This document shows positions 12,507 to 57,979 of a stretch of 64,000 bases of DNA, piece by piece. A program made the position numbers and the translations under genes. Source of the stretch: Thioploca ingrica (GTDB taxonomy: Bacteria; Pseudomonadota; Gammaproteobacteria; Beggiatoales; Beggiatoaceae); the NCBI GenBank assembly GCA_000828835.1, contig AP014633.1:2294001-2358000 (forward strand), given 5' to 3'. Numbering within the stretch: the first letter of the stretch is position 1; each line of letters starts with the position of its first letter. The notes beneath the pieces are model-generated. The model did not search any database and was not told the origin of the DNA. It saw only the letters and a list, made by a program, of their open reading frames with translations.

Positions 12507-12969
12507 TTTTAGGTTACTCAAACAAAGTGATCTTTAATTATAACAAGTTAAAATATAAACTTGTTATGCTGCTTAAAAAAACACTTATTATTTATTGATA
12601 ATACTTGTTTAATTAAAGCAAAGGATAAATCAAAAGTGAAGAGGGTATGGATAATGAAAACAAATTACAGAATTTATTTTATTTATAATCAAATATATAC
12701 TACATCTTTTATTTTTTAACACCAGGAACTGATAAATAATGATATATTTTTCTGGATGACAGATTTTTCAGTTTCCTACCTAAAATTGATGATGTTCTAA
12801 AATTGTTTTATAAGTCGGATCCGGATATGAATAAACATCATACACCTTCTATTACGTTAAAAAAATACTCATCGTTTGTTCATACGGGGTGAGAGAATTC
12901 GGTTGTCAATAAGAATTGACGGTATTGCTCGCCATGTGGACGTTATAATCTCAATGGGGAAAATTGATT
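12507..12969. other. 463-bp AT-rich divergent intergenic region
   Basis: No gene or clear repeat seen. It separates mrcB (minus) from the chemosensory operon (plus) and must carry both promoters. A TATAAT at 12944-12949 lies 21 bases before the MCP start, but no good -35 is found at 16-18 bases; GGGG at 12956-12959 serves as the ribosome-binding site for the ATG at 12970. Confidence 0.4.
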
Positions 12970-14655
12970 ATGTCAAGTCAGAAAATCTTTTTAACAATTT
13001 ATTTAGTTAATATATTAATTATTATAAGTTTAGGTATTCTAACGATTTTATTATTTAAGCTGCAAGGTCAACTGCTGCAAAGTCAACAGGTTCGCTATCA
13101 ATCTTACCTCGTTGCTGATGAACTGCGTCAAAGTTCAGATGATTCAACTCAATTAGCCAGAAGTTATGTCGTTACTGGCGATCCGCAATATAAGAAACGC
13201 TATCGGGAAGTATTAAATATTCGTGATGGTAAACAACCTCGTGCGGATGGTAGAGCGATTACGTTACAAAAAATCATGGAAGAATTAGGTTTTACCTCGG
13301 CTGAATTGGATAAATTAAAAGCAGCAGAAAATAAATCCAATGCTTTAGTTAAAACGGAGCAAATTGCGATGAATGCCGTTAAAGGGTTATTCGATGATGG
13401 TAATGGACATTTTACTAAACAAGGTCAACCGGACTTAGCTTTAGCGCAGCGGCTCATGTTTGATGACAACTATCATCAACAGCAACTCGTTATTATGAAA
13501 CTGATTGATGAATTTTTTAGTCTATTGGATCAAAGAACTAAAACCGCCGTTGATACTTTATCTCAACAAAGTTTTTTTTATCTGACTTCCATATTGAGTT
13601 TGATTGCTGCCCTCATTTTTATGGCAATCGTTTCTTATAGTATTATAAAAATAAAAATATTAAATCCATTAGGTGGTGAACCACTGGTGATGGCAAAAAT
13701 AGCTCAAATGATATCTCATGGCAATTTAACGGTGCAATTTGATGCTATTAGTAAAAAAGTCACTGGGCTTTATGCCGAATTGCAAAAGATGGTCATTAAC
13801 TTGAATGTGTTAATAAAACAAATTCAACAAACCGGTATTCAGGTGACTTCTTCAGCGACCGAGTTAGCGGCGACAGTTAAACAACAAAAAGCCACCATGC
13901 TAAATCAAGTTGAGTTTTCTGAACAAGTGAAAGAATCGGTCAAAGAAATTTCTGAAGTGATAACCAAGCTGGTCCAAACCATGCAGCAAGTCGCCATGCA
14001 ATCAGCAGAAGCAACCGAATTTGCCACTCACAGTCAAATTGATTTGTCGCGGATGGAGTCGACGATGCGTAATATGGAAAATGCTTCTAAATCAATCTCC
14101 TGTCGACTCAGTGCGATTAACGAAAAAATGGAAAATATCACCACGGTCGTCACCACCATCACTAAAGTGGCTGATCAGACTAATTTATTGTCTTTAAATG
14201 CGGCTATTGAAGCTGAGAAAGCTGGGGAATATGGACGTGGTTTTAATGTGGTGGCACGAGAAATTCGCCGGCTGGCTGACCAAACGGCGGTAGCGACTTT
14301 AGATATCGAACAGATGGTTAAAGAAATGCAGGCAGCGGTCACCACCGGCGTCATGGAAATGGATAAATTTATTTCTGAAGTTAAACATAGTGCGGAAGAT
14401 GTCAATAAAATTAATGGTCAAATGAACCGTATTATCGAACAAGTTCAAGCATTATCTCCTCAATTTGAAGAAATCAACATTGCGATGACTAATCAGTCAC
14501 AAAATACCCAAAAAATTAATTATGCTATACAAGAAGTCAGTGAAGGCATGCGCCAAACCGCAGAAGCTTTAGAAGAATCTTTCCAAGCGATCGAGCAACT
14601 GAATGAAGCGGCCAGTTCTTTGCAAAAAGAAATATCCTGTTTTAAAGTTAATTAA
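12970..14655 (+). CDS. Methyl-accepting chemotaxis protein, WspA-like
   Basis: 561 residues. First gene of a seven-gene chemosensory operon in Wsp order. TM helix 1 (~5-28), a helical extracytoplasmic sensor of ~170 residues, TM helix 2 (~200-222, SILSLIAALIFMAIVSYSI), a HAMP-like segment starting NPLGGEPLVMAKIAQMISHGNLTV, then the kinase-control coiled coil. The hairpin tip NLLSLNAAIEAEKAGEYGRGFNVVAREIRRLADQ is nearly canonical. There is no C-terminal CheR/CheB-tethering pentapeptide; the CheR of this operon carries TPRs instead. I prefer the ATG at 12970 (GGGG 10 bases upstream) to the TTG two codons earlier. WspA responds to surface contact in pseudomonads; the stimulus here is unknown. 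Confidence 0.9.
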   Translation: MSSQKIFLTIYLVNILIIISLGILTILLFKLQGQLLQSQQVRYQSYLVADELRQSSDDSTQLARSYVVTGDPQYKKRYREVLNIRDGKQPRADGRAITLQKIMEELGFTSAELDKLKAAENKSNALVKTEQIAMNAVKGLFDDGNGHFTKQGQPDLALAQRLMFDDNYHQQQLVIMKLIDEFFSLLDQRTKTAVDTLSQQSFFYLTSILSLIAALIFMAIVSYSIIKIKILNPLGGEPLVMAKIAQMISHGNLTVQFDAISKKVTGLYAELQKMVINLNVLIKQIQQTGIQVTSSATELAATVKQQKATMLNQVEFSEQVKESVKEISEVITKLVQTMQQVAMQSAEATEFATHSQIDLSRMESTMRNMENASKSISCRLSAINEKMENITTVVTTITKVADQTNLLSLNAAIEAEKAGEYGRGFNVVAREIRRLADQTAVATLDIEQMVKEMQAAVTTGVMEMDKFISEVKHSAEDVNKINGQMNRIIEQVQALSPQFEEINIAMTNQSQNTQKINYAIQEVSEGMRQTAEALEESFQAIEQLNEAASSLQKEISCFKVN

Positions 14656-14687
14656 TAACCTTAGCTTATTCATTTAAGTCAGTTAAT

Positions 14688-15146
14688 ATGTTGTTATTAG
14701 TTTTTTATTTAGGTGATGAAAAATATTTAATTAAGCACGATAGCATCCGAGAAATTTCTCCAATGGTCGTGCTGAAAAAAATGCCGCATATGCCGGATTA
14801 TTTCGCTGGTTTTTTTAATTATCGCGGTCAAGTTGTCCCGGTGATTGATCTTTGTCAATTCATCCAGGGCTATCCTTGTCGAATGCAGCTGAGTACCCGA
14901 ATTATGTTAGTCGATTATCAACAAGCCAATCAGCCAGCCGCTATTTTTGGGTTGATGGCAGAAAAACTAACCGAAGCCATTAGAAAACCCGCCGCGACTT
15001 TGATCTCATCTGGTCCCACTTTGCCGAAATCACGTTATCTAGAAGGTTTCATTATCGAACGCGATAAAATGATTCCTTGTCTCAATTTAGAAACTTTGTT
15101 AAGGCAGTTATATTTGGACACTGATTATGTCTCAACAACAAATTGA
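14688..15146 (+). CDS. CheW-type coupling protein, WspB-like
   Basis: 152-residue CheW domain linking the receptor to the kinase. The domain spans almost the entire protein: LLVFYLGDEKYLIKHDSIREISP, PDYFAGFFNYRGQVVPVIDLCQFI (conserved N-Y-R-G-x-V-V-P-V-x-D block) and a final LNLETLL. It starts 32 bases after the MCP gene and its end overlaps the cheR start by 20 bases, which indicates translational coupling. The operon has two CheW genes, as Wsp systems do; this short one corresponds to WspB. Confidence 0.88.
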   Translation: MLLLVFYLGDEKYLIKHDSIREISPMVVLKKMPHMPDYFAGFFNYRGQVVPVIDLCQFIQGYPCRMQLSTRIMLVDYQQANQPAAIFGLMAEKLTEAIRKPAATLISSGPTLPKSRYLEGFIIERDKMIPCLNLETLLRQLYLDTDYVSTTN

Positions 15147-16404
15147 GTGGTTATTAGCGAAAAAAATCGGCTTATCGGCACAAATTGTTGGCAGTAAAAT
15201 GATTGCTCAAGCGATTCAAACGCGAATGGCACAGTGTGGATTAACGGATAAGCAAACCTACTGGCAACTGTTGCAATCGACTGCAACCGAATGGGAAAAA
15301 CTGCTCGCCATGGTGGTCGTACCCGAAACTTGGTTTTTTCGCAATCAATCGGCTTTTACTTTTATAAATCAATATGTAAAATCAACTTGGCTATCTCAAC
15401 CTAAACCTTTGCGGGTATTAAGCATTCCTTGTTCTACCGGTGAAGAACCTTACTCGATTGCGATAACGCTCTTGGAAGCTGGTTTATCAATACACCAGTT
15501 TCAAATCGATGCGGTGGATATCAGTCAACCCGCGCTGGAGCAAGCCCAACAAGGTCTTTATCCGCCCACCGCTTTTCGTGGTCAAATCGACCGTACTTTG
15601 CAACAGCGTTATTTTGCGTCAACCCCGGCGGGTTATCAAATTCGGGCTGACGTGCAAAGTGCCGTCCGGTTTATGAAAGGAAATTTACTGGATTCACAAT
15701 GGCTCCCCGTTGCCAATCCTTATGACCTCGTATTTTGCCGTAACCTGTTAATTTATTGGGAAGAACCAGCTAGGAAAATCGGTATCAAGCAGTTAAAGCG
15801 ATTATTAAGTAACCGTGGCATTTTATTGGTTGGACACGCCGAAGCGAATTATTTTTACCAGCATGGGTTTGAGAAAAATGATTCAGTCGGGGCTTTTTCT
15901 TGTCGTAATAGCCCGCCTTCTCCAGATAAACCCGCTAAGCTTGATTCAGCAGTTAAGCCGACGAATTTAACTCATCCGCCGTTTTCTCATGTGGTGAGCA
16001 CGCCACGAGCCAAACCAGTTTCGGCAACGGTCAATCAAACTCAGCCAATTCATCCGGTTAATAACGCTGAATTTCACTCTGCAGAAACTCAGTTAGCGGA
16101 AGATTGGTTAAGTATTGCTCAACAAGCCGCTGATCGGGGTCAATTAAAACCAGCCTTCAATTTATGTAAAAAATGTTTAGCTAAACAATTGGATCACGTA
16201 CCAGCCTATTTTTTGATGGGAATTATCTGTCAAGCGCTGGGTTGGAATAGCCAAGCCGAAGATTATTTTAATAAAACGGTTTACTTAGAACCGAATCATA
16301 CCGAGGCGCTAAATCATTTAGCGGGTTTGGTTGAATATCGTGGTGATAAAAAGCAAGCCTTACATTTACGGCGACGTGTGCAACGAATTCGTCAACGAGG
16401 GTGA
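15127..16404 (+). CDS. CheR methyltransferase with C-terminal TPRs, WspC-like
   Basis: 425 residues. N-terminal CheR-type SAM-dependent glutamate methyltransferase: VVPETWFFRNQSAF, LSIPCSTGEEPYSIAI (SAM site), DLVFCRNLLIYW. A Pro/Thr-rich linker (~residues 258-325) leads to a TPR tail (DWLSIAQQAADRGQLKPAFNLCKKCLAKQLDHVPAYFLMGIICQALGWNSQAEDYFNKTVYLEPNHTEALNHLAG). CheR-TPR is the WspC architecture; the TPRs substitute for receptor pentapeptide tethering. It would set the methylation level of the adjacent MCP. Overlaps the upstream cheW end; next gene starts 3 bases after its stop. Confidence 0.92.
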   Translation: MSQQQIEWLLAKKIGLSAQIVGSKMIAQAIQTRMAQCGLTDKQTYWQLLQSTATEWEKLLAMVVVPETWFFRNQSAFTFINQYVKSTWLSQPKPLRVLSIPCSTGEEPYSIAITLLEAGLSIHQFQIDAVDISQPALEQAQQGLYPPTAFRGQIDRTLQQRYFASTPAGYQIRADVQSAVRFMKGNLLDSQWLPVANPYDLVFCRNLLIYWEEPARKIGIKQLKRLLSNRGILLVGHAEANYFYQHGFEKNDSVGAFSCRNSPPSPDKPAKLDSAVKPTNLTHPPFSHVVSTPRAKPVSATVNQTQPIHPVNNAEFHSAETQLAEDWLSIAQQAADRGQLKPAFNLCKKCLAKQLDHVPAYFLMGIICQALGWNSQAEDYFNKTVYLEPNHTEALNHLAGLVEYRGDKKQALHLRRRVQRIRQRG

Positions 16405-16407
16405 ACA

Positions 16408-17085
16408 TTGAAAAACGTTGTTAAACAACACATTAACTGTTGGAAAACGACTGGGGTGTGGGGACAAGAGAAACCACGTTGTCCCAAATTAACTCAAGTC
16501 ATTCATTGCCGCAACTGTGAAGTCTTTACTAAAGCCGGACGCAACCTGTTAGAACGGGATTTGTCAACGGAGTCTGTGCAAGAATGGACTCGAGTGTTAG
16601 CGGCTAAGAAAGAAGAAGAAAGTGTTGGTACACTCGCTGTGGTTATCTTTCGGTTGGCAAGCGAATGGTTAGCCTTACCCGCTGCCATTTTCGCCGAAAT
16701 TATTCCCCTCGCGCCGACTCACACGATTCCTCAGCGTCACAGTTCCGTGTTATTGGGTATTGTTAATGTTCATGGCGAAATCCAGATTTGTGTATCATTA
16801 CAGGCATTGCTTGGTATCGAAACGGATCCAGAGCAAAATAGAAATCATCACCGAACTTATAAACGCATGATGGTCATCAACCGTGCAGAAGAACGCTGGG
16901 TATTTCCAGTTGATGAGATCCATGGCATTTATCATATTCATCCCCACCAACTCCAAAACGTACCGGTGACCGTTTCTAAATCAGAACCGGCTTTTACCCA
17001 GGGATTGTTTCCATGGAAAGATAAATACGTTGCTTTTCTGGATGATGAACTTTTGCTCTATAAACTGAATCGGGGTATGCAATGA
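16408..17085 (+). CDS. CheW-type protein with Cys-rich N-terminal extension, WspD-like
   Basis: 225 residues. The first ~60 residues contain NCWKTTGVWGQEKPRCPKL and HCRNCEVFTKAGRNLLERD, the C-W...C...H-C-R-N-C pattern typical of WspD, which precedes the CheW domain (VVIFRLASEWLALPAAIFAEIIP, GIVNVHGEIQICVSLQALLG). The Cys/His cluster could bind metal, which is inference. TTG start with GAGGGTG about 8 bases upstream. The stop overlaps the start of the kinase gene (ATGA). Acts as the second coupling protein of the array. Confidence 0.88.
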   Translation: MKNVVKQHINCWKTTGVWGQEKPRCPKLTQVIHCRNCEVFTKAGRNLLERDLSTESVQEWTRVLAAKKEEESVGTLAVVIFRLASEWLALPAAIFAEIIPLAPTHTIPQRHSSVLLGIVNVHGEIQICVSLQALLGIETDPEQNRNHHRTYKRMMVINRAEERWVFPVDEIHGIYHIHPHQLQNVPVTVSKSEPAFTQGLFPWKDKYVAFLDDELLLYKLNRGMQ

Positions 17086-19871
17086 CCGCAGCAGTTCCTC
17101 CAGAATTGGCTTTGTTAGCGCTATTTCGCTCAGAAGTTGCTCATCACACCGTGGTGTTAGAAGAAGGTTTAGCGGGATTAAAGCAGAATCCAAATGCGGT
17201 TAAGCCATTAGAACGGATGAAACAGGAAGTGCATGCCATTTGGGGCGGTGCGCGGATTGTGGAATTGGAGTCAATCGTTCATCTCGCGCAAGCCATGAAA
17301 GAGAGTTTGCTCGCGTTACAAATCCATAAAATTACTTTATCATCAGCACAGTTGGATTGTTTAACTCAAATCATTATTTTGTTTCACCAATTGGCGGAAA
17401 CAGCGGTTGAAGAAATAGTCACTTGGGTAAAGGGACATCAAGCCGAAATTGAGCGCCTGATTGTCACTATCAGCGGCTTAGTTGCGGAAACATTAACTCG
17501 CACTGAATTAGTTGAGCAACCCCAAAATTCGGTCGCCTTGTCAACTCAGGTAACCGACTCTGACAACCGCATCATTACTGATCCGGCTTTATTGGGGCTA
17601 TTTTTGAGTGAAGTAGAAGCCCATACGGTTATCTTAAATGAGGGCTTATTAGCGTTAGAAATAAATCCTAGTGCCACAGAGCAATTAGCTGCGCTAATGC
17701 GTTCCGCTCATTCTATCAAAGGCGCTGCTCGGGTAGTGGGATTAGAAATGGTGATTAAATTAGCCCATTTGATGGAAGATTGTTTTGTCGCTGCCCAACA
17801 GGGTAAGTTAACCTTTGTCTCTGAACACATCGATATTCTGTTACATAGTGTGGATAGGTTGACCACGATGGCTCAAGTAGTTAAGTCAGGCACTTACCAG
17901 GATTTAACTCAGTTGAGCCAAGAAAACGAATCATTAACAGTGGCACTTAATTCGATATTGACCGGATCCTTATCACCAATTCCTCTTCCAGTCACTCAAT
18001 CAATATCGGAGCTAATGATTCCTAAAATGCCGCCGCCCTCCTTAACTCCTGCGGTAGAATCGATTTCCCAGTCAGCGGTACTCGTTAATGGAAATACGGA
18101 ATTCAACTCCCCGGCGGTTAGAAGAAAAGCCTTGGCGAATACTGACCGGACGGTAAAAGTAACCGCAACTAAAATAGAACGGCTGATGGGATTAGCCGGA
18201 GAAATTGTCGTCAGTACCCGTTGGTTGTCGCCTTTCTCTGAGTCCTTATTAGCCTTAAAAAAAAGCCATATCGAATTAGCACGTATCTTAGAGAAGCTAC
18301 AAGAAACCTCGGAACATGAGCAAACTTTTTTCAAATGGGTAAAAAAAGCGCAGGCTAAAACCAAAGAATGTAAGTTATTTCTGGCAGAAAAATTAAACCA
18401 GTTGGATATTTTTACTAGTCATACCACCACCCATTCGGATCATCTTTATCATGAAATGATTGGTGTTAGAATGCGTCCCTTTGCAGATAGCATTCAAGGT
18501 TACCCGCGGATGGTTAGGGATTTAGCGAGGGAATTGGGTAAAAAAGTTCATTTTGAAATGATAGGTAAAACCACCGAAGTGGATCAAGACATTCAAGAAA
18601 AATTAGAAGCACCGCTTAATCATTTACTCCGCAATGCCCTTGACCATGGCATTGAATTTCCTGAAGAACGCCTGGCAATCGGTAAAGCCGAAACCGGTTA
18701 CCTACGTCTCGAAATTGGACATCGTTCGGGGATGTTAATGATCACCGTGGCAGATGATGGGCGTGGGCTCGATTTAGCACGCTTACGCCAAAAAATTGCC
18801 CAAAAAAAATTAGCCAGTGTGGAAATGATCAAGCAACTCACGGAAACTGAATTAATAAATTTTCTGTTTCTACCGGGCTTTTCTACCATGGAACAGGTGA
18901 CAGAAATTTCTGGACGGGGTGTCGGTTTAGACGTGGTACATAACATGGTGCATGAAGTCGGTGGCGTGGTTCGTGCAGTATCTACCCCCGGTAAAGGCAT
19001 GAGTTTTCAGCTTGAGCTACCGATCACGCTATCCGTGGTTCGCACTTTTTTAGTCACTATTGCTGGCGAGCCCTTTGCATTTCCTTTAGCGCGGATCGAA
19101 CGTTGCCTAAAATTGCCTAAAGCTAACATTGAGCGAGTGGAAGATCGTCAATACTTTCGTTTTGGTAATACTAACATTGCTTTAATCGACATTCATGATG
19201 TATTGGATAAAATCCAACCCACTTATCAACAAAATGAATTAGCGGTGGTCGTTATCAGCGACCGGTTAAATGCGTATGGTTTAGTCGTTGATAAATTCTT
19301 AGGTGAATGTGATCTCGTCGTCCGTCCCTTGGATCCGCGTCTGGGTAAAGTCGCTAACATGAGTGCCGCTGCCATTATGCTCGATGGTTCACCGGTCCTG
19401 ATTTTTGATATTGATGATTTAGTCCGTTCTATTGATAATTTATTGATTGGCAAACGGTTACGTAAATTGGATGAATTATCTGAGCCAAGCCCAAGTAGAC
19501 GCAAACGGGTTTTAGTCGTGGATGACTCGATTACCGTTCGAGAAATGGAGCGCAAAATTCTTGAAAATCAAGGCTATGAAGTTGAAGTCGCCGTGGATGG
19601 AATCGAAGGGTGGAATGCCATCCGCATTGAGCATTTTGATTTATTGGTCTCTGATGTGGATATGCCGCGAATGAATGGCATTGATTTAATTAGTCGCATT
19701 AGACAACACGAAGAATTAAAATCACTTCCCATTATTATTATTTCGTATAAAGATTCCAAAGAACATCGACTCCAAGGATTAGAAGCGGGTGCCAACTATT
19801 ATTTAACTAAAAGTAGCTTTGAAGATAATTCTTTTATAGAGGCGATCGTTGATCTCATCGGTGAGGCTTGA
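17082..19871 (+). CDS. CheA hybrid histidine kinase with C-terminal receiver, WspE-like
   Basis: 929 residues. Two N-terminal Hpt-type domains: the first has HAIWGGARIVEL (His51, with the usual Lys of H-x-x-K-G replaced by Trp), the second the canonical HSIKGAARVVGL (His210). Then the dimerisation domain (TATKIERLMGLAGEIVVSTRW), HATPase (HLLRNALDHGIEFPEERL, DDGRGLD, GRGVGLDVV), CheW-like P5 domain, and a receiver from ~805 (RVLVVDDSITVREMERKIL; acceptor Asp in LLVSDVDMP). CheA-REC fusion is the WspE architecture. The doubled Hpt is unusual for WspE. ATGA overlap with the upstream cheW, 6 bases to cheB. Should phosphorylate the response regulator at 20966. Confidence 0.93.
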   Translation: MTAAVPPELALLALFRSEVAHHTVVLEEGLAGLKQNPNAVKPLERMKQEVHAIWGGARIVELESIVHLAQAMKESLLALQIHKITLSSAQLDCLTQIIILFHQLAETAVEEIVTWVKGHQAEIERLIVTISGLVAETLTRTELVEQPQNSVALSTQVTDSDNRIITDPALLGLFLSEVEAHTVILNEGLLALEINPSATEQLAALMRSAHSIKGAARVVGLEMVIKLAHLMEDCFVAAQQGKLTFVSEHIDILLHSVDRLTTMAQVVKSGTYQDLTQLSQENESLTVALNSILTGSLSPIPLPVTQSISELMIPKMPPPSLTPAVESISQSAVLVNGNTEFNSPAVRRKALANTDRTVKVTATKIERLMGLAGEIVVSTRWLSPFSESLLALKKSHIELARILEKLQETSEHEQTFFKWVKKAQAKTKECKLFLAEKLNQLDIFTSHTTTHSDHLYHEMIGVRMRPFADSIQGYPRMVRDLARELGKKVHFEMIGKTTEVDQDIQEKLEAPLNHLLRNALDHGIEFPEERLAIGKAETGYLRLEIGHRSGMLMITVADDGRGLDLARLRQKIAQKKLASVEMIKQLTETELINFLFLPGFSTMEQVTEISGRGVGLDVVHNMVHEVGGVVRAVSTPGKGMSFQLELPITLSVVRTFLVTIAGEPFAFPLARIERCLKLPKANIERVEDRQYFRFGNTNIALIDIHDVLDKIQPTYQQNELAVVVISDRLNAYGLVVDKFLGECDLVVRPLDPRLGKVANMSAAAIMLDGSPVLIFDIDDLVRSIDNLLIGKRLRKLDELSEPSPSRRKRVLVVDDSITVREMERKILENQGYEVEVAVDGIEGWNAIRIEHFDLLVSDVDMPRMNGIDLISRIRQHEELKSLPIIIISYKDSKEHRLQGLEAGANYYLTKSSFEDNSFIEAIVDLIGEA

Positions 19872-19877
19872 GCAAAT

Positions 19878-20966
19878 ATGCGAATTGGAATAGTCAATCA
19901 CTTAGTGGCGGAAAGTTTACAGCAAATTCTTACCCAAGAATCCAGTTATAAAATTGCCTGGATTGCACGCGATGGTGCCCAAGCCGTTGCCCAGTGTATA
20001 AAAAATACTCCCGATTTAGTGTTAATGGAACTGAATATGCCGGTCATGAACGGGGTTGAAGCCACTCGTTGTATTATGAAAGAATCGCCCTGTCCCATTT
20101 TGATCGTGACCACGACGGTCGATAAGAATACGGCTCAGGTATTTGAAGCGATGGGCTATGGCGCTTTAGATGCCGTCGATACCCCGCTGATAGGGAATGA
20201 TAGTCACGCGCAGAGTAGCCGGGAGATTTTTTTAAAGAAAATCAAAGTGATTGCTAAATTGCATACCTTCTCGGGGTTACCTCATTTAAAACGCCCATCG
20301 CCATTGATCAGTCCAGTACGCCAAGCACCGCTTACTCAGTCGGTTGCGCCTCATTTAATCGCTATCGGTTCTTCTACCGGGGGACCAAAAGCTTTAGCAG
20401 AATTATTAGCTAATTTACCTAACACCTTACCAGCGACCCTAGTTATTATTCAACATGTCAATCAAGAATTTTCAGTCAGTTTAGCGGCTTGGTTAAATGC
20501 TCATTCCGCTTTGCCAGTACAGTTAGCCTTAAGCCATCAACGACCGCAAATCGGCACGGTCTACCTAGCCAGTAGCAATGATCATTTAATTTTAACTAAG
20601 CAACTCACTTTTGCTTATACACCCGAACCACACAGTATCCCTTACCGTCCCTCAGTAAACGTTTTCTTTCAAAGTGTTGCTAAACATTGGCCTCAAAAAA
20701 GTGTGGCGGTGTTACTGACTGGAATGGGGCGAGATGGCGCTGAAGGCTTAGCCTTATTGCGAACAGCGGGTTGGTACACGATTGCGCAAGATGAAGCCAC
20801 TAGCGTCATTTACGGTATGCCTAAAGCCGCTAAAGAGCGAGGTGCCGCTACAGACATTTTACCACTGAGTGAAATCAGTAAAGCGATTATTCATTTTTTG
20901 CAGTGCAATGGTCTTGATATGGCTAACCAGTTAAAGCTTACCCAATTAATTGATTCTTCTTCATAA
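19878..20966 (+). CDS. CheB methylesterase with degenerate receiver, WspF-like
   Basis: 362 residues. The C-terminal methylesterase domain is intact: AIGSSTGGPKALAELL (Ser nucleophile), IIQHVNQEFS (His) and TGMGRDGAEGL (Asp). The receiver begins MRIGIVNHLVAESLQQIL and continues WIARDGAQAVAQC, clearly WspF-like, but the acceptor Asp is Glu (DLVLMELNMPVMNG, Glu51, codon gaa) and one acidic-pocket Asp is His8 (family: MRIGIVND). Phosphorylation by WspE therefore looks impossible in the usual way, and Asp-to-Glu can mimic the phosphorylated state, so constitutive demethylation is a reasonable inference. Its stop overlaps the next start by one base. Confidence 0.92.
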   Translation: MRIGIVNHLVAESLQQILTQESSYKIAWIARDGAQAVAQCIKNTPDLVLMELNMPVMNGVEATRCIMKESPCPILIVTTTVDKNTAQVFEAMGYGALDAVDTPLIGNDSHAQSSREIFLKKIKVIAKLHTFSGLPHLKRPSPLISPVRQAPLTQSVAPHLIAIGSSTGGPKALAELLANLPNTLPATLVIIQHVNQEFSVSLAAWLNAHSALPVQLALSHQRPQIGTVYLASSNDHLILTKQLTFAYTPEPHSIPYRPSVNVFFQSVAKHWPQKSVAVLLTGMGRDGAEGLALLRTAGWYTIAQDEATSVIYGMPKAAKERGAATDILPLSEISKAIIHFLQCNGLDMANQLKLTQLIDSSS

Positions 20967-22483
20967 TGAACTTTGTTAGCGATAATGATAAATCGGTTAT
21001 CCCGACTGCAGCGGCTGCTTTGACTCCACATCGGATTACGGTGTTACTCGTTGATGATCAAACTATTATTGGCGAAGCAGTCCGCCGCTTATTAAGTACC
21101 GAACCGGATATTGATTTTCATTACTGTCGAGATCCCACCCAAGCGATTAAAATAGCGAATCAAATTTCACCGACCGTTATTCTGCAGGATTTAGTGATGC
21201 CAGAAATTGATGGCTTGACCTTAGTTCGTTATTTTCGCGCCAATCCCGCTACTCAGCAAGTCCCCCTGATTGTGCTATCGAGTAAAGAAGAAGCTAATAC
21301 CAAGGCGGAAGCATTTACCTTAGGTGCTAATGATTATCTCGTCAAATTACCCGACCGATTAGAACTGATTGCTCGAGTTCGCCATCATTCCAGAGGTTAT
21401 ATTAATCGATTAGAACGAGACGAAGCGCTAAAAGAATTAGCTAAAGCCAACCAATTTATTCGCCAAACTTTTGGTCGATATCTCTCTGATGATGTCGTTG
21501 CTACCATTTTGGAATCCCCGGCGGGAGCCGCATTAGGCGGTGAAAAGCGATATGTGACCATTATGATGACTGATCTGCGCGGATTTACCTCAACTTGTGA
21601 GCAGTTACCCGCAGAAGATGTCGTCACAATTCTGAATATTTACCTCGAAACCATGACTGAGATTATCTTGAAATATCAAGGTACGATCAATGAATTTATT
21701 GGCGATGCCATTGTCGTCGTGTTTGGTGCCCCCATTTTGCGTGATGACGATGCCCAACGAGCCGTTGCCTGTGCGTTAGAAATGCAAGTGGCTATGGCGA
21801 AAGTCAATAAGCAATGTCAAGTTCGCGGCTACCCCTGGGTAGAACAAGGTATTGGAATTAACACTGGCGAGGTTATCGTGGGTAATATCGGCTCCAAAAA
21901 ACGCACGAAATATGATGTAATTGGACATAATGTTAACCTCACTTCTCGCATTGAATCCTATACCGTTGGCGGGCAAATTTTTATTTCGCAAAGTACCGTA
22001 ACCGCCTGTGGTCCGATTGTACGAATCACTAATCAAATGGAAGTGATGCCCAAAGGCATAAAAAAACCCATTATCATCTATGAAATCAGTGGCATTGAGG
22101 GTCAATTCAATTTGTTTTTACCCGAGCAGGAAGTGGTTCAATGGGTAGAATTATCCACACCATTACCGGTAAAGCTGACCATCTTGTCTGGAAAACACGC
22201 CAGTGAGGAAGCCTACCTAGGTAATCTGCTGCGATTGAATCATAAAGGCGCGGAAATACAAGCTAATATGAGCGGTGAAAAATTACTTAACCTCAAAATA
22301 GCGCTATTTGATGAAACCGGACAGGAAATTACCACCGATCTCTATGCGAAGATTACGCACACTTTTGAACACCAGCCCACCCTGTTTCAAGTCCATTTTA
22401 CGGCGATTCCCGCTGAAGCTAAAGCTTTTTTCGACAAAAGCTTAGCTCCCTCCGCTTTATATCAACTTAACCTGATTTATTAA
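20966..22483 (+). CDS. WspR-type receiver fused to a class III nucleotide cyclase
   Basis: 505 residues. Receiver (~25-140) with VLLVDDQTIIGEAVRRLL, EPDIDFHYCRDPTQA and VILQDLVMPEIDG (Asp75), and GANDYLVKLPDRLELIARVRHHS: this is the WspR receiver pattern. A helical linker (LKELAKANQFIRQTFGRYLSDDV) leads to a class III cyclase domain (~193-350), not GGDEF. Metal Asp203 (MTDLRGFT) and Asp247 (FIGDAIVVVFG) are present, as are Asn324 and Arg328 (VNLTSR). The purine-specifying Lys position carries Glu243, while Asp317 is kept, so cAMP versus cGMP is open. The C-terminal ~105 residues form a beta-rich domain, possibly PilZ-like. Last gene of the operon, the apparent output. Confidence 0.92.
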   Translation: MNFVSDNDKSVIPTAAAALTPHRITVLLVDDQTIIGEAVRRLLSTEPDIDFHYCRDPTQAIKIANQISPTVILQDLVMPEIDGLTLVRYFRANPATQQVPLIVLSSKEEANTKAEAFTLGANDYLVKLPDRLELIARVRHHSRGYINRLERDEALKELAKANQFIRQTFGRYLSDDVVATILESPAGAALGGEKRYVTIMMTDLRGFTSTCEQLPAEDVVTILNIYLETMTEIILKYQGTINEFIGDAIVVVFGAPILRDDDAQRAVACALEMQVAMAKVNKQCQVRGYPWVEQGIGINTGEVIVGNIGSKKRTKYDVIGHNVNLTSRIESYTVGGQIFISQSTVTACGPIVRITNQMEVMPKGIKKPIIIYEISGIEGQFNLFLPEQEVVQWVELSTPLPVKLTILSGKHASEEAYLGNLLRLNHKGAEIQANMSGEKLLNLKIALFDETGQEITTDLYAKITHTFEHQPTLFQVHFTAIPAEAKAFFDKSLAPSALYQLNLIY

Positions 22484-22504
22484 TCAGTTATCAGTTATCA
22501 AGAT

Positions 22505-22574
22505 GTAGGTCGGACAAAGTCCGACCAACCGCTAAAAAGATTGGGTCGGACACGCTTCGCTTTGTCCGACCTAC
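22505..22574. repeat. GTAG-headed REP palindrome pair
   Basis: GTAGGTCGGACAAAGTCCGA forms a hairpin at 22505-22526. An inverted copy ends GTCCGACCTAC at 22574, with its own internal GGTCGGAC/GTCCGACC stem (22543-22570). Two facing copies form a BIME-like unit just after the cyclase stop, where they may also limit transcript read-through. Confidence 0.75.
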
Positions 22575-22657
22575 CTGAATTTTTAGCCTCACAGTTGCTT
22601 AAGAGCCACAGTGTGTAAGGTAAGTTGGGTAATACTAAATTACATTCAAGAATAAAT

Positions 22658-22682
22658 GTAGGTCGGTAAGCCGTTGCCGACC
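22658..22682 (+). repeat. GTAG-headed REP palindrome
   Basis: GTAGGTCGG, a short loop and CCGACC make a small hairpin of the same family as the pair at 22505-22574, with a different loop. Confidence 0.6.
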
Positions 22683-22733
22683 AGCGTGGCTACTCAATGG
22701 CTCTCTTCTTAAAGGCAAGTTAGTATTAAAAAG

Positions 22734-46289: not shown

Positions 46290-49200
46290 TCACCGATGTA
46301 ACCACACCCGTAGTAAAGATAATAATTTATTCGCATCAAAGGGCTTAGCTAGATAATCACTGGCGCCCGCTTCAATACATTTGGCTTTATCTCCTTTCAT
46401 GGCTTTCGCTGTCAAGGCAATGATGGGCAGTTTACGGAAACGCACTTGGCTCCGAATTTGGCGAATCGTTTCATAACCATCCATGCCCGGCATCATAATG
46501 TCCATGAGAATCACACTAATATCCGTTTGTGTTTCTAAAATGGGTAACGCTTCCTGACCATTGTGGGCGACGACAATTTCCATTCCCTTATCTTCTAACG
46601 TGGCGGCTAAGGCAAAGACATTACGCACATCGTCATCCACAATTAATACTTTTTTACCGGTTAAAATCGCTTCTTTGTTACGAACTTTGTGTAAGAGTTG
46701 TTGGTGTTCTTGAGGTAATTGTGATTCAATTTGATGGAGAAATAGAGTCACTTCATCCACCAGCCGCTCTGGCGAGTAGACTTTTTTAATCGTGAGGATA
46801 TCGTGGTATTTTTGTAAAATCGCTTCTTCTGCTGAGGTCAATTCGCGTTCGGCATAAATAATCACTGGCATTTGCGCGAGATAAATTTCGTTATGCAATT
46901 GCTCAAGCCATTGTAAACCGGTATTTTTTCCAACACTGACATCTAAAACGATACAATCAAAGTGTTGAGATTGTAGTTGTTGTTGTGCCTCTGCTTCCGT
47001 AGTAACCACGGTAGTTTGAACGTCTCCGCTATTGATCCAGTGCAAAATCGCTTGCTGACGTTGTTGATCATCTACGATGACCAGTAAATCTTTTACAGTT
47101 TTGGTAATGAAAGTTTCTATATGCTTAAAAGCATCACTGAGTTGTGCCATGCTCACCGGCTTGAGGCAGTAACCAATTGCGCCCATTTTTTTAGCATCTT
47201 TGCTCTCATCGGTGCCCGAAACAAAGTGAACCGGAATATGACGGGTAACGGGATTGTCTTTGAGTTGTTCCATGACGCTCCAACCATCAACTTGTGGCAA
47301 TCCCAGGTCAAGAATAATTGCATGTGGTTGATAAGTCGCCGCCAGTTGTAACCCCATGTCACCGTCCGTTGCCAGTAAGCACTTGAAAAATTTCTCATGT
47401 GCTATTTCCATTAACACTTGAGCAAATGAGTGATCATCTTCAACGATCAAAAGAACTTTATCATCAGCCGTCAAATTATCTCGATCATCATTGGGAGGCG
47501 GTTGCGGTGGTAAGGTTACTTCATCAAGGGATTGTTTTAATGAATGTTTATCAATAGCGGGGGCTGGCTGACTAGCTATCGTTGGTGATCGGGTTAGAGA
47601 ACGTGGCGTCAATGTTTTATCAGTTTGAATTCGTTCCGGGAAGTAGCAGGTAAAAGTACTGCCTTGACCCATTTCACTTTGTAATTGAATCTCTCCACCT
47701 AACAGTTGCACTAACTGGCGAGAAATAGATAAACCTAAGCCGGTACCACCATAGCGGCGGCTAGTCGTGCCATCCGCTTGTTGAAACGCTTCAAAAATGA
47801 CCTTTTGTTTATCAGCAGGAATACCGATGCCGGTATCGGTCACCTGGATAGCAATGGTGGTATGCGGATCTAAGTGACTCCGTGATAAATTCGCTGCAGC
47901 CCGTGGTCGAGAAATGTTAACGGTAATACCGCCCTGACTGGTAAATTTAAAGGCATTAGCCAGTAGATTGTTGATAACTTGTATCAAGCGTTGAGAATCG
48001 GTATACCAACTCTCGGGTAAATCTTCGGCTAATTGAATCGTAAAATTAATCCCTTTTTCTTCCGCAATATGGCTGAATTTTTGTTCCAGCGAGTCAATTA
48101 AGTCGGTAAACAGAATTTCTTCCGGATGAATTTCCACTTTGCCGGCTTCAACTTTAGATAAATCTAAAATGTCGTTAATGAGTGACAGTAAATCGGAACC
48201 AGCGTTGTGAATGGTATTAGCATATTTAATTTGCGTGGCGGTCAGATTGTTGTCTTTATTGTCAGCGAGGAGTTGTGCCAAAATCAGCAAACTGTTTAAA
48301 GGTGTCCGCAGTTCATGAGACATATTCGCTAAAAATTCCGATTTATACTTACTCGCTAATTCTAATTCGTTAGCTTTGGTTTGTAATTCCAGTTTGGTTT
48401 TTTCAAGTACGGCATTTTTTTCTTGGATAGCGGCTTGTTGGCGTTCTAAATCGCGGGTGCGGATTTCAAGTTCTTCATTAATTTGGCGTAGTTCTTCTTG
48501 TTGGGCTTGGAGTTCTTCGGATTGATGTTGGAGTTCTTCGGCTTGTTTGGTTAGCCTATCGTTACTTTGTTGTAATTCCAATTGTTGAGATTGTAATGCT
48601 TCCGCTTGGGTTTGACTTTTCTCTAACAAGATTTGCATTTGCGTGCGCGATTCGGCGGTATTGACTGCAATCGCAATATTGGGCAGTACCTGATTTAAAA
48701 ATTCCAAATGTAATTCAGTGAAAGTCGCAAACGAAGCTAATTCAATCACCCCTTTTAACTGGTTCTCATATAAAAAAGGCGCTACTAAAATGGTATTCGG
48801 TAAAGCTTCTCCCAAACCGCTGCTAATGGTAATGTAGTTTGGTGGTGCTTTGGTGATCACAAATAGTTTTCGTTCCAAACCGGCTTGTCCCACAATTCCT
48901 TCGCCCATTTTAAATTCATAAATCGAATGATGACGCCAGATATAGGCATGACTCGCTATCATTTTTAAGTAAGGCGGTTGAGTTTCTTCGGCTTGATAAA
49001 GGTAAAAAGCACCAATCTGGGCTTCTAAGTAAGGCGTGAGAAAATTAATAATATTTTCAGTTAAATGGATAATATTCTGTTCACCACTAATACAATCATT
49101 GAGTTGGGTTTGACCGGTTTTAATCCAGTCTTGCTTAGCCTTTTGTATCGTGGCCTGTTGTAGCGCTTGGGTCATGTCTATTAAGGCTTGTCCCAACTGA

Positions 49201-50063
49201 TCTTCTTGGGAAAGGCGTTTAATTTCAGTGTTATAATTCCCGGTCGCAATGGCATGCGCTTGAGCAATAGTCGTTTTCATTCCTTCTTTGAGTTGTTGCG
49301 AAGAATGAACAATTTCACCAATTTCATCCTGAGCGCGGTAAACGACGACTTCTTCTATTAATTTACCTTGTGATAGTGCTTTGAGTTGAGTATTAATATG
49401 TACTAAGGGCTGAATTAATTGTCGAGTCAACCGAGTGATTAATACTAAAGCAATTAAGCCAACGAGGGTCGTTAGGAAAGTGATAGCCCAAGCCGCATTT
49501 TGTTGCGCACTGAGCGCAGAATCCCGCAATGCCTCCATCCTTTTTTGGTGACTTTCAATCAGGGTACTCAACGAATCAGTCATCTGCTGATAAGTTGTCC
49601 AGCCGGCGCCGCTAATCACTAATTGCATGGCTTCTTTTTTGTCATAGTCATCACTGAAATGTAACACTTGATGAATAATGTCAGTAAATTTTTCTTCCGT
49701 TTCTTGAAAAGCAAACCAGGGTTGACGACTGGATTCATCGGCGGTACCCATCTGCAGATAGCGCAGGGCAACTTGTTTCATTCGTTCGTTAAGCTTCTGC
49801 TCGAGTTCCGATAGTTCGCGCTTAACACGTTGCATGGTTTCCTCATCCGTCACACTGCTATGCAGAATTAGGCGTAACCAAATTTCTAAGATTATTTTTT
49901 CTAAACTCTTAATTTTCAAGATAGGAATGGCTTCGGTTTCCACTAATTTCATGGAAATATGCGCCACATAATAAGTATAAAAAAAACCAATGCCACCGCT
50001 AGTCACACTCAGAAATACCACAACTACAATCGATTGGAGCAGTAATTTAGAACGCAGATACAC
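46290..50063 (-). CDS. Giant hybrid histidine kinase with GAF and three receivers
   Basis: 1257 residues. TM1 ~10-30, a helical extracytoplasmic region (~31-190), TM2 ~190-212, HAMP ~213-265, GAF-like domain ~325-470, a Gln/Glu-rich coiled coil ~475-570, HisKA with MSHELRTPLN (His583), HATPase (VINNLLANAFKF, DTGIGIP, GGTGLGLSIS) to ~810, then receivers with Asp919 (IILDLGLP), Asp1041 (CIVLDVSVG, divergent) and Asp1188 (VILMDIMMP). GTG start with AAGGATAAG upstream. The gene follows a substrate-binding protein by 23 bases on the same strand, suggesting a periplasmic binding-protein/kinase pair. Its core is paralogous to the kinases at 51195 and 57980. Confidence 0.92.
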   Translation of the reverse strand: MYLRSKLLLQSIVVVVFLSVTSGGIGFFYTYYVAHISMKLVETEAIPILKIKSLEKIILEIWLRLILHSSVTDEETMQRVKRELSELEQKLNERMKQVALRYLQMGTADESSRQPWFAFQETEEKFTDIIHQVLHFSDDYDKKEAMQLVISGAGWTTYQQMTDSLSTLIESHQKRMEALRDSALSAQQNAAWAITFLTTLVGLIALVLITRLTRQLIQPLVHINTQLKALSQGKLIEEVVVYRAQDEIGEIVHSSQQLKEGMKTTIAQAHAIATGNYNTEIKRLSQEDQLGQALIDMTQALQQATIQKAKQDWIKTGQTQLNDCISGEQNIIHLTENIINFLTPYLEAQIGAFYLYQAEETQPPYLKMIASHAYIWRHHSIYEFKMGEGIVGQAGLERKLFVITKAPPNYITISSGLGEALPNTILVAPFLYENQLKGVIELASFATFTELHLEFLNQVLPNIAIAVNTAESRTQMQILLEKSQTQAEALQSQQLELQQSNDRLTKQAEELQHQSEELQAQQEELRQINEELEIRTRDLERQQAAIQEKNAVLEKTKLELQTKANELELASKYKSEFLANMSHELRTPLNSLLILAQLLADNKDNNLTATQIKYANTIHNAGSDLLSLINDILDLSKVEAGKVEIHPEEILFTDLIDSLEQKFSHIAEEKGINFTIQLAEDLPESWYTDSQRLIQVINNLLANAFKFTSQGGITVNISRPRAAANLSRSHLDPHTTIAIQVTDTGIGIPADKQKVIFEAFQQADGTTSRRYGGTGLGLSISRQLVQLLGGEIQLQSEMGQGSTFTCYFPERIQTDKTLTPRSLTRSPTIASQPAPAIDKHSLKQSLDEVTLPPQPPPNDDRDNLTADDKVLLIVEDDHSFAQVLMEIAHEKFFKCLLATDGDMGLQLAATYQPHAIILDLGLPQVDGWSVMEQLKDNPVTRHIPVHFVSGTDESKDAKKMGAIGYCLKPVSMAQLSDAFKHIETFITKTVKDLLVIVDDQQRQQAILHWINSGDVQTTVVTTEAEAQQQLQSQHFDCIVLDVSVGKNTGLQWLEQLHNEIYLAQMPVIIYAERELTSAEEAILQKYHDILTIKKVYSPERLVDEVTLFLHQIESQLPQEHQQLLHKVRNKEAILTGKKVLIVDDDVRNVFALAATLEDKGMEIVVAHNGQEALPILETQTDISVILMDIMMPGMDGYETIRQIRSQVRFRKLPIIALTAKAMKGDKAKCIEAGASDYLAKPFDANKLLSLLRVWLHR

Positions 50064-50086
50064 AGCTTATCCTTTTAATAAATTAA

Positions 50087-51079
50087 CTACTTAAAAATAG
50101 ATTGCGCTTCTGCTATAGCCATTTGGGTTTGGATATAGTCTTGGGGTTGCAAGGAATGAATGGGTTGACCCACTTGTTTGAGGTAAAGCAATAATTCTTT
50201 AATATAAATGGGTAACTCTTGTTCATTACTAGCGATAATCGTATTGAGGTCAGTATGAATTTTACCGCCGGCATAGAGGGTATCTAATTCTTCATCAGTA
50301 CGAGAACTCGTGCGAAACATAGTCGCTTTTACAATGGCATAAAAAGCGGGCCGATTATTGAGATCAGCTTGCCACTGCACGGCGCGTAACCAGCCGCGTA
50401 AAAATTTTTTGACGATTTCCGGTTGCTTTTGTAGCAGCGGTTTTTGAACACTAATACCTTCGGGAATAACCCCAGGAAAATTCGCTGAGGTAAATAACAA
50501 TTGTCCCACTTTCTCGGCGATGGCTTTGGATGCTTCCGGATCGTAACTCACAATCGCCGCCAATTTACCTTTCTTAAAGGCTTGATTTAAATCATAAGTA
50601 TTCGCTATTTCGACTAATTTGACTTCATCGATATTAATTTTAGCTTTATCAAGCACTTGTTTGATGAAAAACTGTATCGGCGCTGATTGAGTGTAAACGC
50701 CAATTTTTCCGCCTTTGACCTGCTCCAAACTAGAGAGACTGTGATGCAAAATAAATAAATCACCACCATGAGACCAATCATGCTCATAAATAATGACATA
50801 GCGGGGGGAACGATTGATCATTTCGATGGCATTACCCAACATACTGACCATAAAATCGGTTTTGTTATTTTCAAACGCTTTTAGATTTTCGGTTTCGTAG
50901 TCGGTAAATTGTTTAATAATTACGTCGATTCCTTCAGCTTGCCAAAATCCTTGTTGCTGCGCTACATAAGCCGTACTCCAAGGCATCCATTCTACCAGAC
51001 CTAATTTATAAGTTTCTGTTAATCCAGGTAAAGACCAACAAACTAGCCATAGCAACGTCATCAATTGATTTAATTTCAT
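50087..51079 (-). CDS. Periplasmic substrate-binding protein (NMT1/SsuA-like)
   Basis: 330 residues. Signal peptide QLMTLLWLVCWSLPGLTE. The mature protein follows the NMT1/SsuA/ThiY type II binding-protein pattern: YKLGLVEWMPWSTAYVAQQQGFWQAEGIDVIIKQF, DFMVSMLGNAIEMI, GGKIGVYTQSAPIQFFIKQVL, VSYDPEASKAIAEKVG and KKFLRGWLRAVQWQADL. No permease or ATPase gene is adjacent; instead the hybrid kinase at 46290 starts 23 bases downstream. A ligand-sensing role for that kinase is therefore more likely than transport. Ligand unknown, with aliphatic sulfonates, pyrimidines or nitrate-like anions among family possibilities. AAGGAG 8 bases before ATG. Confidence 0.87.
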   Translation of the reverse strand: MKLNQLMTLLWLVCWSLPGLTETYKLGLVEWMPWSTAYVAQQQGFWQAEGIDVIIKQFTDYETENLKAFENNKTDFMVSMLGNAIEMINRSPRYVIIYEHDWSHGGDLFILHHSLSSLEQVKGGKIGVYTQSAPIQFFIKQVLDKAKINIDEVKLVEIANTYDLNQAFKKGKLAAIVSYDPEASKAIAEKVGQLLFTSANFPGVIPEGISVQKPLLQKQPEIVKKFLRGWLRAVQWQADLNNRPAFYAIVKATMFRTSSRTDEELDTLYAGGKIHTDLNTIIASNEQELPIYIKELLLYLKQVGQPIHSLQPQDYIQTQMAIAEAQSIFK

Positions 51080-51108
51080 CGTTATCTCCTTAAGAAATGA
51101 TTTAGAGT

Positions 51109-51146
51109 GTAGGGTGGTATTTGCTGCGGCGCTCTTCCTACCCTAC
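51109..51146. repeat. GTAG REP palindrome
   Basis: GTAGGGTGGTATTTGCTGCG returning as CCTACCCTAC; GTAGGGT and ACCCTAC arms invert exactly. In the short gap between the binding protein gene and the next kinase. Confidence 0.6.
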
Positions 51147-51194
51147 AACTGGCTACCATTATGTTAAAAGCGAGCCCTTAAATTCGCCGACTTT

Positions 51195-55949: not shown

Positions 55950-55987
55950 ATTTTTTTAATGAACTCCTTTCAATAACAATAAGAGTA

Positions 55988-56018
55988 GTAGGATGGGTAG
56001 AACGAAGCGAAACCCATC
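55988..56018 (+). repeat. GTAG REP palindrome
   Basis: GTAGGATGGGTAGAACGAAG then CGAAACCCATC: arms GATGGGT and ACCCATC. In the divergent gap between the second kinase and the DNA methyltransferase; the rest of the gap is AT-rich and must hold both promoters. Confidence 0.65.
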
Positions 56019-56153
56019 AAATTGTTAGCTCGTAGCTCGTTACCAAACTCTGCGAACCGCAACCTCCGCGGGCTGGTGATATTTATTTTATATTTTCAAT
56101 AGCTTGTAATTAATTAATGATACACCCTAAAGTTTTATTATAATAGTCTAACT

Positions 56154-57503: not shown

Positions 57504-57506
57504 AAC

Positions 57507-57743
57507 ATGAAATTTGAAGACTTAGTGAAATTATACTTAGAAAAAAAGGAGAGGTTGGGTGCAAATGTTCACCAACATATATCGGAAATCTTAAGGGAAG
57601 CCAAGAAACTTCATAAGCGAGATTGGCAGGAACAGCCCACCCGGAAAGGAGATCATGAACAGAGTTGGAGAGCATTTAAGGGAAAGGATCTGGAAAAGTT
57701 AATTGAATGTGAATTAAGAGCAAGCGAGTGTAGGATGCGGTGA
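57507..57743 (+). CDS. Truncated ORF, probably the 5' end of the partner restriction endonuclease
   Basis: 78 codons. MKFEDLVKLYLEKKERLGAN ... RKGDHEQSWRAFKGKDLEKLIECELRASEC resembles the N-terminal part of PD-(D/E)XK-type restriction enzymes that follow methyltransferases of this kind (S-W-R-x-F-K-G-K-x-x-E-K-x-I). The last codons and the TGA lie inside the REP at 57730, so the original reading frame was ended by repeat insertion or deletion; no catalytic core remains. The restriction assignment is inference. Confidence 0.6.
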   Translation: MKFEDLVKLYLEKKERLGANVHQHISEILREAKKLHKRDWQEQPTRKGDHEQSWRAFKGKDLEKLIECELRASECRMR

Positions 57744-57758: not shown

Positions 57759-57795
57759 ACTCGATATACCAACCAGCGGCTTGAATTTAGCTTGT

Positions 57796-57930: not shown

Positions 57931-57979
57931 GCGAGCAAGCAATATGTGAGCACTTAATTGGCATCAAAGTTCAATCAAA

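What the first reader, a model, noticed from the sequence alone, without database searches (positions are those of the whole stretch)
12970..22483. Complete Wsp-type chemosensory operon whose output is a class III nucleotide cyclase instead of a GGDEF protein
Seven genes in unbroken Wsp order (MCP, CheW, CheR-TPR, Cys-rich CheW, CheA-REC, CheB, regulator) overlap or abut. The last gene keeps the WspR receiver (VLLVDDQTIIGEAVRR, VILQDLVMP, GANDYLVKLPD) but carries a class III cyclase with both metal Asp and the Asn/Arg pair, then a beta-rich C-terminal domain. Known Wsp systems make cyclic-di-GMP through a GGDEF domain. Here a surface-sensing array would instead drive cAMP or cGMP. The domain swap with retained receiver is direct; the physiology is inference.
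Basis: partly seen in the sequence, partly recalled or inferred. Interest (0 to 1): 0.9.

Follow-up and report, generated by a model that had tools for sequence, protein, structure and literature searches.

The report
Wsp sensing array driving cyclic GMP
A Thioploca-like bacterium carries a complete Wsp-type sensing gene set whose last protein keeps the WspR input domain but, in place of the cyclic-di-GMP enzyme, has an enzyme domain predicted to make a one-base messenger, likely cyclic GMP; the same arrangement recurs in relatives of sulfate reducers and in a cyanobacterium, so this sensing machinery has probably been wired to more than one chemical signal.

Summary
Confirmed: window 12964-22483 is an unbroken seven-gene Wsp-type operon (wspA-F order) ending in a 505-aa regulator with receiver, class III cyclase and a C-terminal domain predicted to be a degenerate PilZ fold. 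No GGDEF. The receiver is WspR-type (191 bits to solved WspR, 68 to the next receiver), shares one starred clade with ten GGDEF-WspRs, and has no second of its kind in the genome. It recurs: at least 21 of 389 sampled genomes of Desulfonema's class have it, CheB directly upstream at 17 of 22 places. The catalytic domain is closest to the guanylyl cyclase Cya2 and keeps its base-reading Glu, so cGMP is likelier than cAMP, but the second specificity residue is Asp here, so the nucleotide is unsettled. New: at 15 of 22 of those places an Apyc1-family (cyclic-mononucleotide phosphodiesterase) gene follows, a likely off-switch; the window's genome has none over the cut-off. GGDEF-Wsp operons form one clade beside a cyclase-Wsp operon, so a cyclase output may be the older state (weakly supported). 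Prior print: a 2012 survey lists cyclase outputs in CheR-TPR clusters in general terms. Activity, phosphorylation and stimulus are untested.

The parts
12964..14655 (+). wspA-like methyl-accepting chemotaxis protein (563 aa; possible ATG start at 12970)
   Evidence: PF00015 117.9 bits; 95% identical in the Thioploca MAG L022; matches canonical Wsp MCPs over about residues 205-563 only
14688..15146 (+). wspB-like CheW (152 aa)
15127..16404 (+). wspC-like CheR with a C-terminal TPR region (425 aa)
   Evidence: PF01739 146 bits; TPR_2 19.7 bits, under its cut-off of 27; NCBIfam TPR-type hits under their cut-offs
16408..17085 (+). wspD-like CheW with the four-Cys N-terminus (Cys 11, 25, 34, 37)
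   Evidence: all four Cys also in the 8 canonical plasmid WspDs
17082..19871 (+). wspE-like CheA-REC hybrid kinase with two Hpt stretches (929 aa)
   Evidence: WspE tree
19878..20966 (+). wspF-like CheB methylesterase (362 aa)
   Evidence: NCBIfam CheB 432.5 bits, cut-off 342
20966..22483 (+). wspR-position regulator: WspR-type receiver, class III cyclase, PilZ-like domain (505 aa)
21041..21469 (+). receiver and linker helix, residues 26-168
   Evidence: 191 and 182 bits to WspR structures 3bre and 3i5a, next receiver (PleD) 68 bits
21548..22087 (+). class III cyclase catalytic domain, residues 195-374 (D203, E243, D247, D317, N324, R328)
   Evidence: 55% identity to Cya2 2w01 in the structure match
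22106..22480 (+). C-terminal domain predicted to have a PilZ fold, residues 381-505, without RxxxR or [DN]x[SA]xxG

Best explanation
The window holds a complete seven-gene Wsp-type chemosensory operon whose last protein joins a WspR-type receiver to a class III nucleotide cyclase and a predicted PilZ-fold domain, so the array would likely switch on a cyclic mononucleotide, most likely cGMP, where known Wsp systems make cyclic-di-GMP. Proposed course: an unknown stimulus at the MCP (WspA) raises WspE autophosphorylation; CheR-TPR (WspC) and CheB (WspF) tune the array; WspE phosphorylates Asp75 of the regulator; the receiver and its linker helix drive cyclase dimerisation, by analogy with WspR (recalled); GTP (perhaps also ATP) is cyclised; the PilZ-like domain, which lacks the usual c-di-GMP motifs, serves as a dimerisation or partner surface. 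At 15 of 22 sampled places in one Desulfobacterota class a co-directional Apyc1-family phosphodiesterase gene follows and would remove the signal; in the window's genome that role must fall to another enzyme. Shown: gene content and order, receiver kinship, cyclase residues, recurrence, hydrolase linkage in relatives. Inferred: phosphotransfer, activation, nucleotide, PilZ role, stimulus, downstream effect.
For: Order and content; same seven genes in the same order in eight canonical Wsp operons and the WspD four-Cys motif in all 8. Receiver 191 bits to WspR against 68 for the next; 57-row WspR-type receiver clade, support 100/97*, holding the window and all 10 GGDEF-WspR rows. Only WspR-type receiver found in its genome. 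Co-occurrence with WspE in the window's order: the 7 genomes (window included) with a full-length regulator of 60% identity or more have it, the 5 others tested (45-54% full length, or a cyclase-part match of 66% in G028) do not at E<=1e-120, not all candidates being scored. In G021 and G041 the unlinked REC-cyclase is the only WspR-type receiver at E<=1e-25. CheB directly upstream at 17 of 22 places in Desulfonema's class. Metal and transition-state residues and base-reading Glu present; closest solved catalytic domain is Cya2 type. Apyc1-family gene directly downstream at 15 of 22 places; family present in 16 of 21 regulator-bearing genomes against 2 of 20 without (Fisher p 2.5e-5).
Against: No activity data. 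The pair Glu243-Asp317 is mixed: in a mycobacterial cyclase the Lys-to-Glu single mutant (same Glu-Asp pair) made more cGMP and much less cAMP than wild type but still preferred ATP by kcat/Km (PMC4215837, passages), and the Cya2 Tyr that boosts GTP use is Ser here. The window's own genome has no Apyc1-family gene over the cut-off, nor has its genus mate. The genome has 16 class III cyclase matches and 9 cNMP-binding matches, so no effector can be assigned. The MCP's sensor part is unlike canonical WspA by this comparison. In five other genomes of the family (G021, G004, G041, G003, G017) the regulator and the Wsp genes lie on different contigs with no CheB or CheA next to the regulator, so linkage is not needed there.
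Confidence: 0.66

Rival explanations
1. Same array and same regulator, but the product is cAMP (or both nucleotides), so this parallels the cAMP branch that Pil-Chp arrays are known for (recalled).
For: Asp317, the usual ATP-side residue, in the window, its genus mate and L021, 7 of 44 rows of A2 in all; a Glu-Asp pair kept ATP preference in Ma1120 K101E; two CRP-type proteins in the genome.
Against: Glu243 at the base-reading position in 44 of 44 aligned rows, which I picked from the best 120 hits, and Cya2 as the closest solved enzyme; Gly, as in Cya2, at the second position in 37 of 44 rows.
Confidence: 0.25
2. The regulator merely sits in the operon and acts independently, while WspE signals only through WspF and its own receiver.
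For: In five genomes of the same family the regulator is on another contig than the Wsp genes; cyclases of the same type occur without a WspR-type receiver.
Against: Receiver kinship with WspR, conserved phospho-acceptor set, sole WspR-type receiver in the genome, adjacency in different phyla, co-occurrence with WspE.
Confidence: 0.08
3. The cyclase is degenerate or strictly a PilZ-regulated scaffold, and the operon's true output is protein-protein signalling.
For: Nothing direct; the PilZ-like domain has lost both c-di-GMP motifs, so some parts have diverged.
Against: Catalytic residues complete in the window and in 43 of 44 aligned rows; hydrolase linkage in relatives.
Confidence: 0.05

Closest known systems
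Wsp system of Pseudomonas and relatives (wspA-F plus wspR)
   Same: gene order, CheR-TPR, four-Cys WspD, CheA-REC, CheB, WspR-type receiver with its linker
   Different: class III cyclase plus predicted PilZ-like domain replace GGDEF; MCP sensor part not recognisably alike
Response regulators in CheR-TPR gene clusters with a 'mononucleotidyl cyclase' output (PMC3447774, 2012, passages read)
   Same: REC fused to a class III cyclase in a chemosensory cluster with CheR-TPR
   Different: the passages I read give a domain category without naming WspR-type receivers, nucleotide, C-terminal domain or partner hydrolase; its supplementary table could not be read
Zetaproteobacteria SAG C09 wspABCDEF without wspR (PMC5513912, section 18 read)
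   Same: Wsp core without GGDEF WspR, an adenylate cyclase nearby
   Different: there the cyclase lies 6 ORFs away and is not described as having a receiver
Cya2 guanylyl cyclase of Synechocystis
   Same: catalytic domain 55% identical in the structure match, base-reading Glu
   Different: Gly and Tyr where the window has Asp317 and Ser327; only the catalytic domain was compared
Apyc1 / class II MBL phosphodiesterases (PMC9117128, passages read)
   Same: neighbour gene in relatives is over the PF23023 cut-off, one compared with PDB is closest to Apyc1 structures 7u2r/7u2s
   Different: sits beside a cyclase, often in a chemosensory operon, not in a phage; none over the cut-off in the window's genome
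cGMP signalling through CgrA in Rhodospirillum centenum (PMC4681086, abstract and passages)
   Same: bacterial cGMP signalling; a Che-like cascade also acts in encystment
   Different: the passages do not describe a cyclase as the array's receiver output

Membership tests
Wsp chemosensory system | wspABCDEF gene set in that order with CheR-TPR and CheA-REC | tested here: met
   TPR part only weakly matched
Wsp chemosensory system | WspD four-Cys N-terminus | tested here: met
   present in the window and in 8 of 8 canonical WspDs
Wsp chemosensory system | WspR-type receiver on the last gene | tested here: met
Wsp chemosensory system | GGDEF diguanylate cyclase output | tested here: not met
   no GGDEF; Guanylate_cyc instead. 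So it is a Wsp variant, not a canonical Wsp
Wsp chemosensory system | response to surface contact | not testable with these tools
   MCP sensor part not aligned with canonical ones
Class III nucleotide cyclase | two metal Asp, Asn/Arg transition-state pair | tested here: met
   D203, D247, N324, R328
Guanylyl cyclase (Cya2 type) | Glu at the first base-reading position | tested here: met
   E243
Guanylyl cyclase (Cya2 type) | Gly (not Asp) at the second position, Tyr before the Arg | tested here: not met
   D317 and S327 in the window; Gly at 317 in 37 of 44 rows, Tyr at 327 in 0 of 44
Guanylyl cyclase (Cya2 type) | GTP preferred over ATP | not testable with these tools
   needs enzyme assay
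PilZ domain | six-stranded barrel plus helix | tested here: met
   predicted model; Foldseek's best match is a PilZ domain at E 9.2e-4, TM about 0.5; PF07238 hit by 19 of 63 relatives at E<=1, best 1.8e-4, not by the window's own
PilZ domain | c-di-GMP motifs RxxxR and [DN]x[SA]xxG | tested here: not met
   absent in the window; RxxxR in 3 of 63, the second motif in 4 of 63, both in 0 of 63
Apyc1 family (neighbour gene of relatives) | over the PF23023 cut-off | tested here: met
   12 of 12 neighbours scanned, 73-104 bits, cut-off 50
Apyc1 family (neighbour gene of relatives) | present in the window's genome | tested here: not met
   best 26.9 bits against a cut-off of 50

The most novel reading that the evidence does not exclude
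Wsp began as a cyclic-mononucleotide pathway: arrays wired to a REC-guanylyl cyclase-PilZ protein with an Apyc1-type phosphodiesterase as off-switch are the older, phylum-spanning form, the well-known c-di-GMP Wsp is a later output exchange in one proteobacterial branch, and the Apyc1 enzymes that phages use against Pycsar immunity are borrowed from such bacterial signalling operons.
Probability: 0.2. Interest if true: 0.87.

Novelty: new variant of a known kind. Interest (0 to 1): 0.74.

Why it matters
Wsp is a textbook case of a chemosensory array that makes cyclic-di-GMP. A conserved branch in which the same kinase core faces a predicted guanylate cyclase would show that one array can be wired to different second messengers by changing the module behind one receiver, would add a regulated source to the short list of bacterial cGMP systems, and gives bacterial Apyc1 relatives a likely home in ordinary signalling, a possibility that the Apyc1 authors raised. 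All of it can be tested with purified proteins.

Tried and rejected

Limits: only 3 candidates a genome were scored and the 389 genomes are a draw from a larger class, so 21 is a lower bound; and part of 54 not all candidates were scored. The 20 control genomes were the first listed without the regulator, not a random or phylogenetically matched draw. Many loci are MAG contigs cut at ends. The eight canonical operons were picked from 30 listed plasmid hits. Rows of the receiver tree were chosen by hand; L192, L196, L200, L202, L207, L209, L212, L213, L215-L217, L219 and L221 were left out (several are duplicates; L196 and L200 are not), as was own-genome L112; L046 gave no match long enough; two of the eight SpoIIE rows are one and the same protein; one REC-cyclase row (L218) fell outside the WspR-type clade on a long branch.
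Full report
What is there. Window 12964-22483 carries seven same-strand genes that overlap or abut: MCP, CheW, CheR with a weak TPR, CheW with four N-terminal Cys, CheA-REC with two Hpt stretches, CheB, and a 505-aa regulator. The neighbouring ORFs of some size on both sides are on the other strand. The genome is a single 4.81-Mb contig. Its genus mate G040 shares contig length and regulator with the MAG 'Thioploca sp. SL_4_0', so I call it Thioploca-like.

Is it Wsp? Eight canonical Wsp operons, picked from 30 listed plasmid hits, of Cupriavidus (two), Azoarcus, Novosphingobium (two), Mesorhizobium, Variovorax and one Hyphomicrobiales bacterium, match all seven window genes in the same order. 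Their last genes are REC-GGDEF (7 of 8 by similarity; the eighth by Pfam). The WspD four-Cys motif is kept in the window and in all 8. The window's MCP matches the four MCPs only from about residue 205 onward, so the stimulus cannot be carried over.

The receiver. Against solved structures the window's receiver plus linker scores 191 and 182 bits to the two WspR structures and 68 to the next receiver, PleD. In its own genome the best of the 110 other receiver matches scores 66 bits. A tree of 73 receivers puts 57 in one clade (100/97*): the window, most of the REC-cyclases, REC-SpoIIE proteins, one REC-histidine kinase, and all ten GGDEF-WspRs, which form one subclade (100/99*). One REC-cyclase row and six divergent cyclase receivers fall outside, with the nine other receivers of the own genome. 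The SpoIIE and kinase outputs are confirmed by Pfam in the proteins scanned. So 'WspR-type receiver' is a family that has been joined to at least four output modules, GGDEF being one.

How common is it? Named genomes: of 80 loci found with the regulator's family, many sharing only the cyclase part, 10 have CheB directly upstream and 5 show all six other Wsp genes in the stretch held (L022 Thioploca; L023, L024, L026 Desulfobacterota or 'Deltaproteobacteria'; L037 the cyanobacterium Iningainema tapete, with the MCP moved). In Desulfonema's class, at least 21 of 389 sampled genomes have a match at E<=1e-150; of the 22 places, 17 have CheB within 600 bp upstream. In the window's order, 23 of 42 genomes match at E<=1e-90, 9 of them only from residue 70 or later; in the short stretches held, only the window and its genus mate have CheA and CheB next to the regulator. 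Of 12 genomes of that order tested for WspE, the 7 with a full-length regulator of 60% identity or more have it and the 5 others do not. In five (G021, G004, G041, G003, G017) the Wsp genes lie on another contig without a linked regulator in the stretch held. In G021 and G041 the REC-cyclase is the only WspR-type receiver at E<=1e-25, while G003 and G004 have one more (REC-SpoIIE) and G017 two more (REC-SpoIIE and REC-histidine kinase).

The cyclase. The catalytic domain's closest solved relatives are Cya2 (2w01) and the phytochrome chimaera 6fht; the two are near-identical in the printed stretch but differ at the base-reading position, Glu in 2w01 and Lys in 6fht. The window has Glu243, kept in 44 of 44 rows that I picked from the best 120 hits. 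Among Wsp-linked regulators it is Glu in 10 of 10 named loci and 16 of 17 of the class sample (the exception L196 reads Ala). The second position is Gly, as in Cya2, in 37 of the 44 rows, but Asp in the window, its genus mate and L021; the Cya2 Tyr is Ser. Literature passages say that Glu marks guanylyl cyclases and that Cya2 has a Glu-Gly pair; an engineered Glu-Asp pair gave more cGMP and much less cAMP than wild type but kept ATP preference by kcat/Km. I therefore put cGMP ahead of cAMP, at roughly 2.5 to 1; that ratio is judgement.

The partner hydrolase. At 15 of 22 places in the class sample an MBL-fold gene starts within 700 bp downstream on the same strand, 14 of them among the 17 CheB-linked. 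Twelve such neighbours scanned, from sulfate-reducer relatives, cyanobacteria, Riflebacteria and gammaproteobacteria, are all over the PF23023 (Apyc1) cut-off; for L039 and L100 the gene lies upstream. One compared with PDB is closest to Apyc1. None of 14 control genomes reaches the cut-off. Of 21 genomes with the regulator 16 have the family, 15 of them next to the regulator; of 20 without it, 2 (p 2.5e-5). The Apyc1 paper describes broad cNMP phosphodiesterases and suggests a role for host copies in other cNMP signalling. The window's genome and its genus mate have none over the cut-off; of the five other family members searched only G017 has.

Direction of change. In the WspE tree the GGDEF operons are one clade (98/100*) and the cyanobacterial cyclase operon is its sister (97/100*). 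With outgroups this makes a cyclase output the simpler ancestral state, but the outgroup branches are long and holding all cyclase operons together is rejected at p 0.048 with one outgroup and not at 0.126 with four. I treat it as a lead.

In print. Nine full-text searches, of which 6, 10, 11, 79, 81, 94 and 95 bear on Wsp or chemosensory cyclases, found a 2012 survey that lists mononucleotidyl cyclases among regulators in CheR-TPR clusters and a note on a Zetaproteobacterium with wspA-F but no wspR and a cyclase nearby. In their listings and the papers opened I found no description of a WspR-type receiver on a guanylate-type cyclase, of its PilZ-like domain, or of the Apyc1-family linkage. 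Subscription papers are mostly not in this library, and most listed papers were not opened.

Noticed in passing
L023:11114-12349, L024:9812-11026, L026:11613-12803: Right after the REC-cyclase (or its hydrolase) these Wsp operons carry a second WspR-type receiver fused to a SpoIIE-type phosphatase, so one array may feed two outputs.
   Followed up: partly
L255:1456-2655: A WspR-type receiver fused to a histidine kinase in G017, a fourth output module for this receiver family.
   Followed up: partly
L166:25-2850 (Desulfonema magnum): Two more WspR-type receivers fused to SpoIIE phosphatases lie side by side, away from the cyclase locus.
   Followed up: no
L023:12634-13632: A haem-NO-binding (HNOB) protein, followed by what reads as a sensor kinase, lies downstream of the Wsp-cyclase genes.
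   Followed up: no
L058, L065, L073, L075, L079, L081, L088: Seven loci of receiver-less cyanobacterial-type cyclases have an Apyc1-like gene within about 450 bp downstream; 5 of the 7 were checked against Pfam and are over the cut-off.
   Followed up: partly
L022/L221 (genus mate): WspE and the regulator of the Thioploca MAG are each split between frames; with a low-coverage MAG this may be assembly error.
   Followed up: no
G000:C1:4037805 and 2632716 (L113, L121): Two MscS-type channels with cyclic-nucleotide-binding domains, candidate effectors for a cNMP signal.
   Followed up: no
window 22484-22733: Short palindromic repeats of the form GTAGGTCGGAC...GTCCGACCTAC follow the operon (seen in the sequence).
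   Followed up: no
window about 46308-59164, minus strand: Several long multi-receiver proteins (open frames of 1258-1706 aa) cluster here.
   Followed up: no
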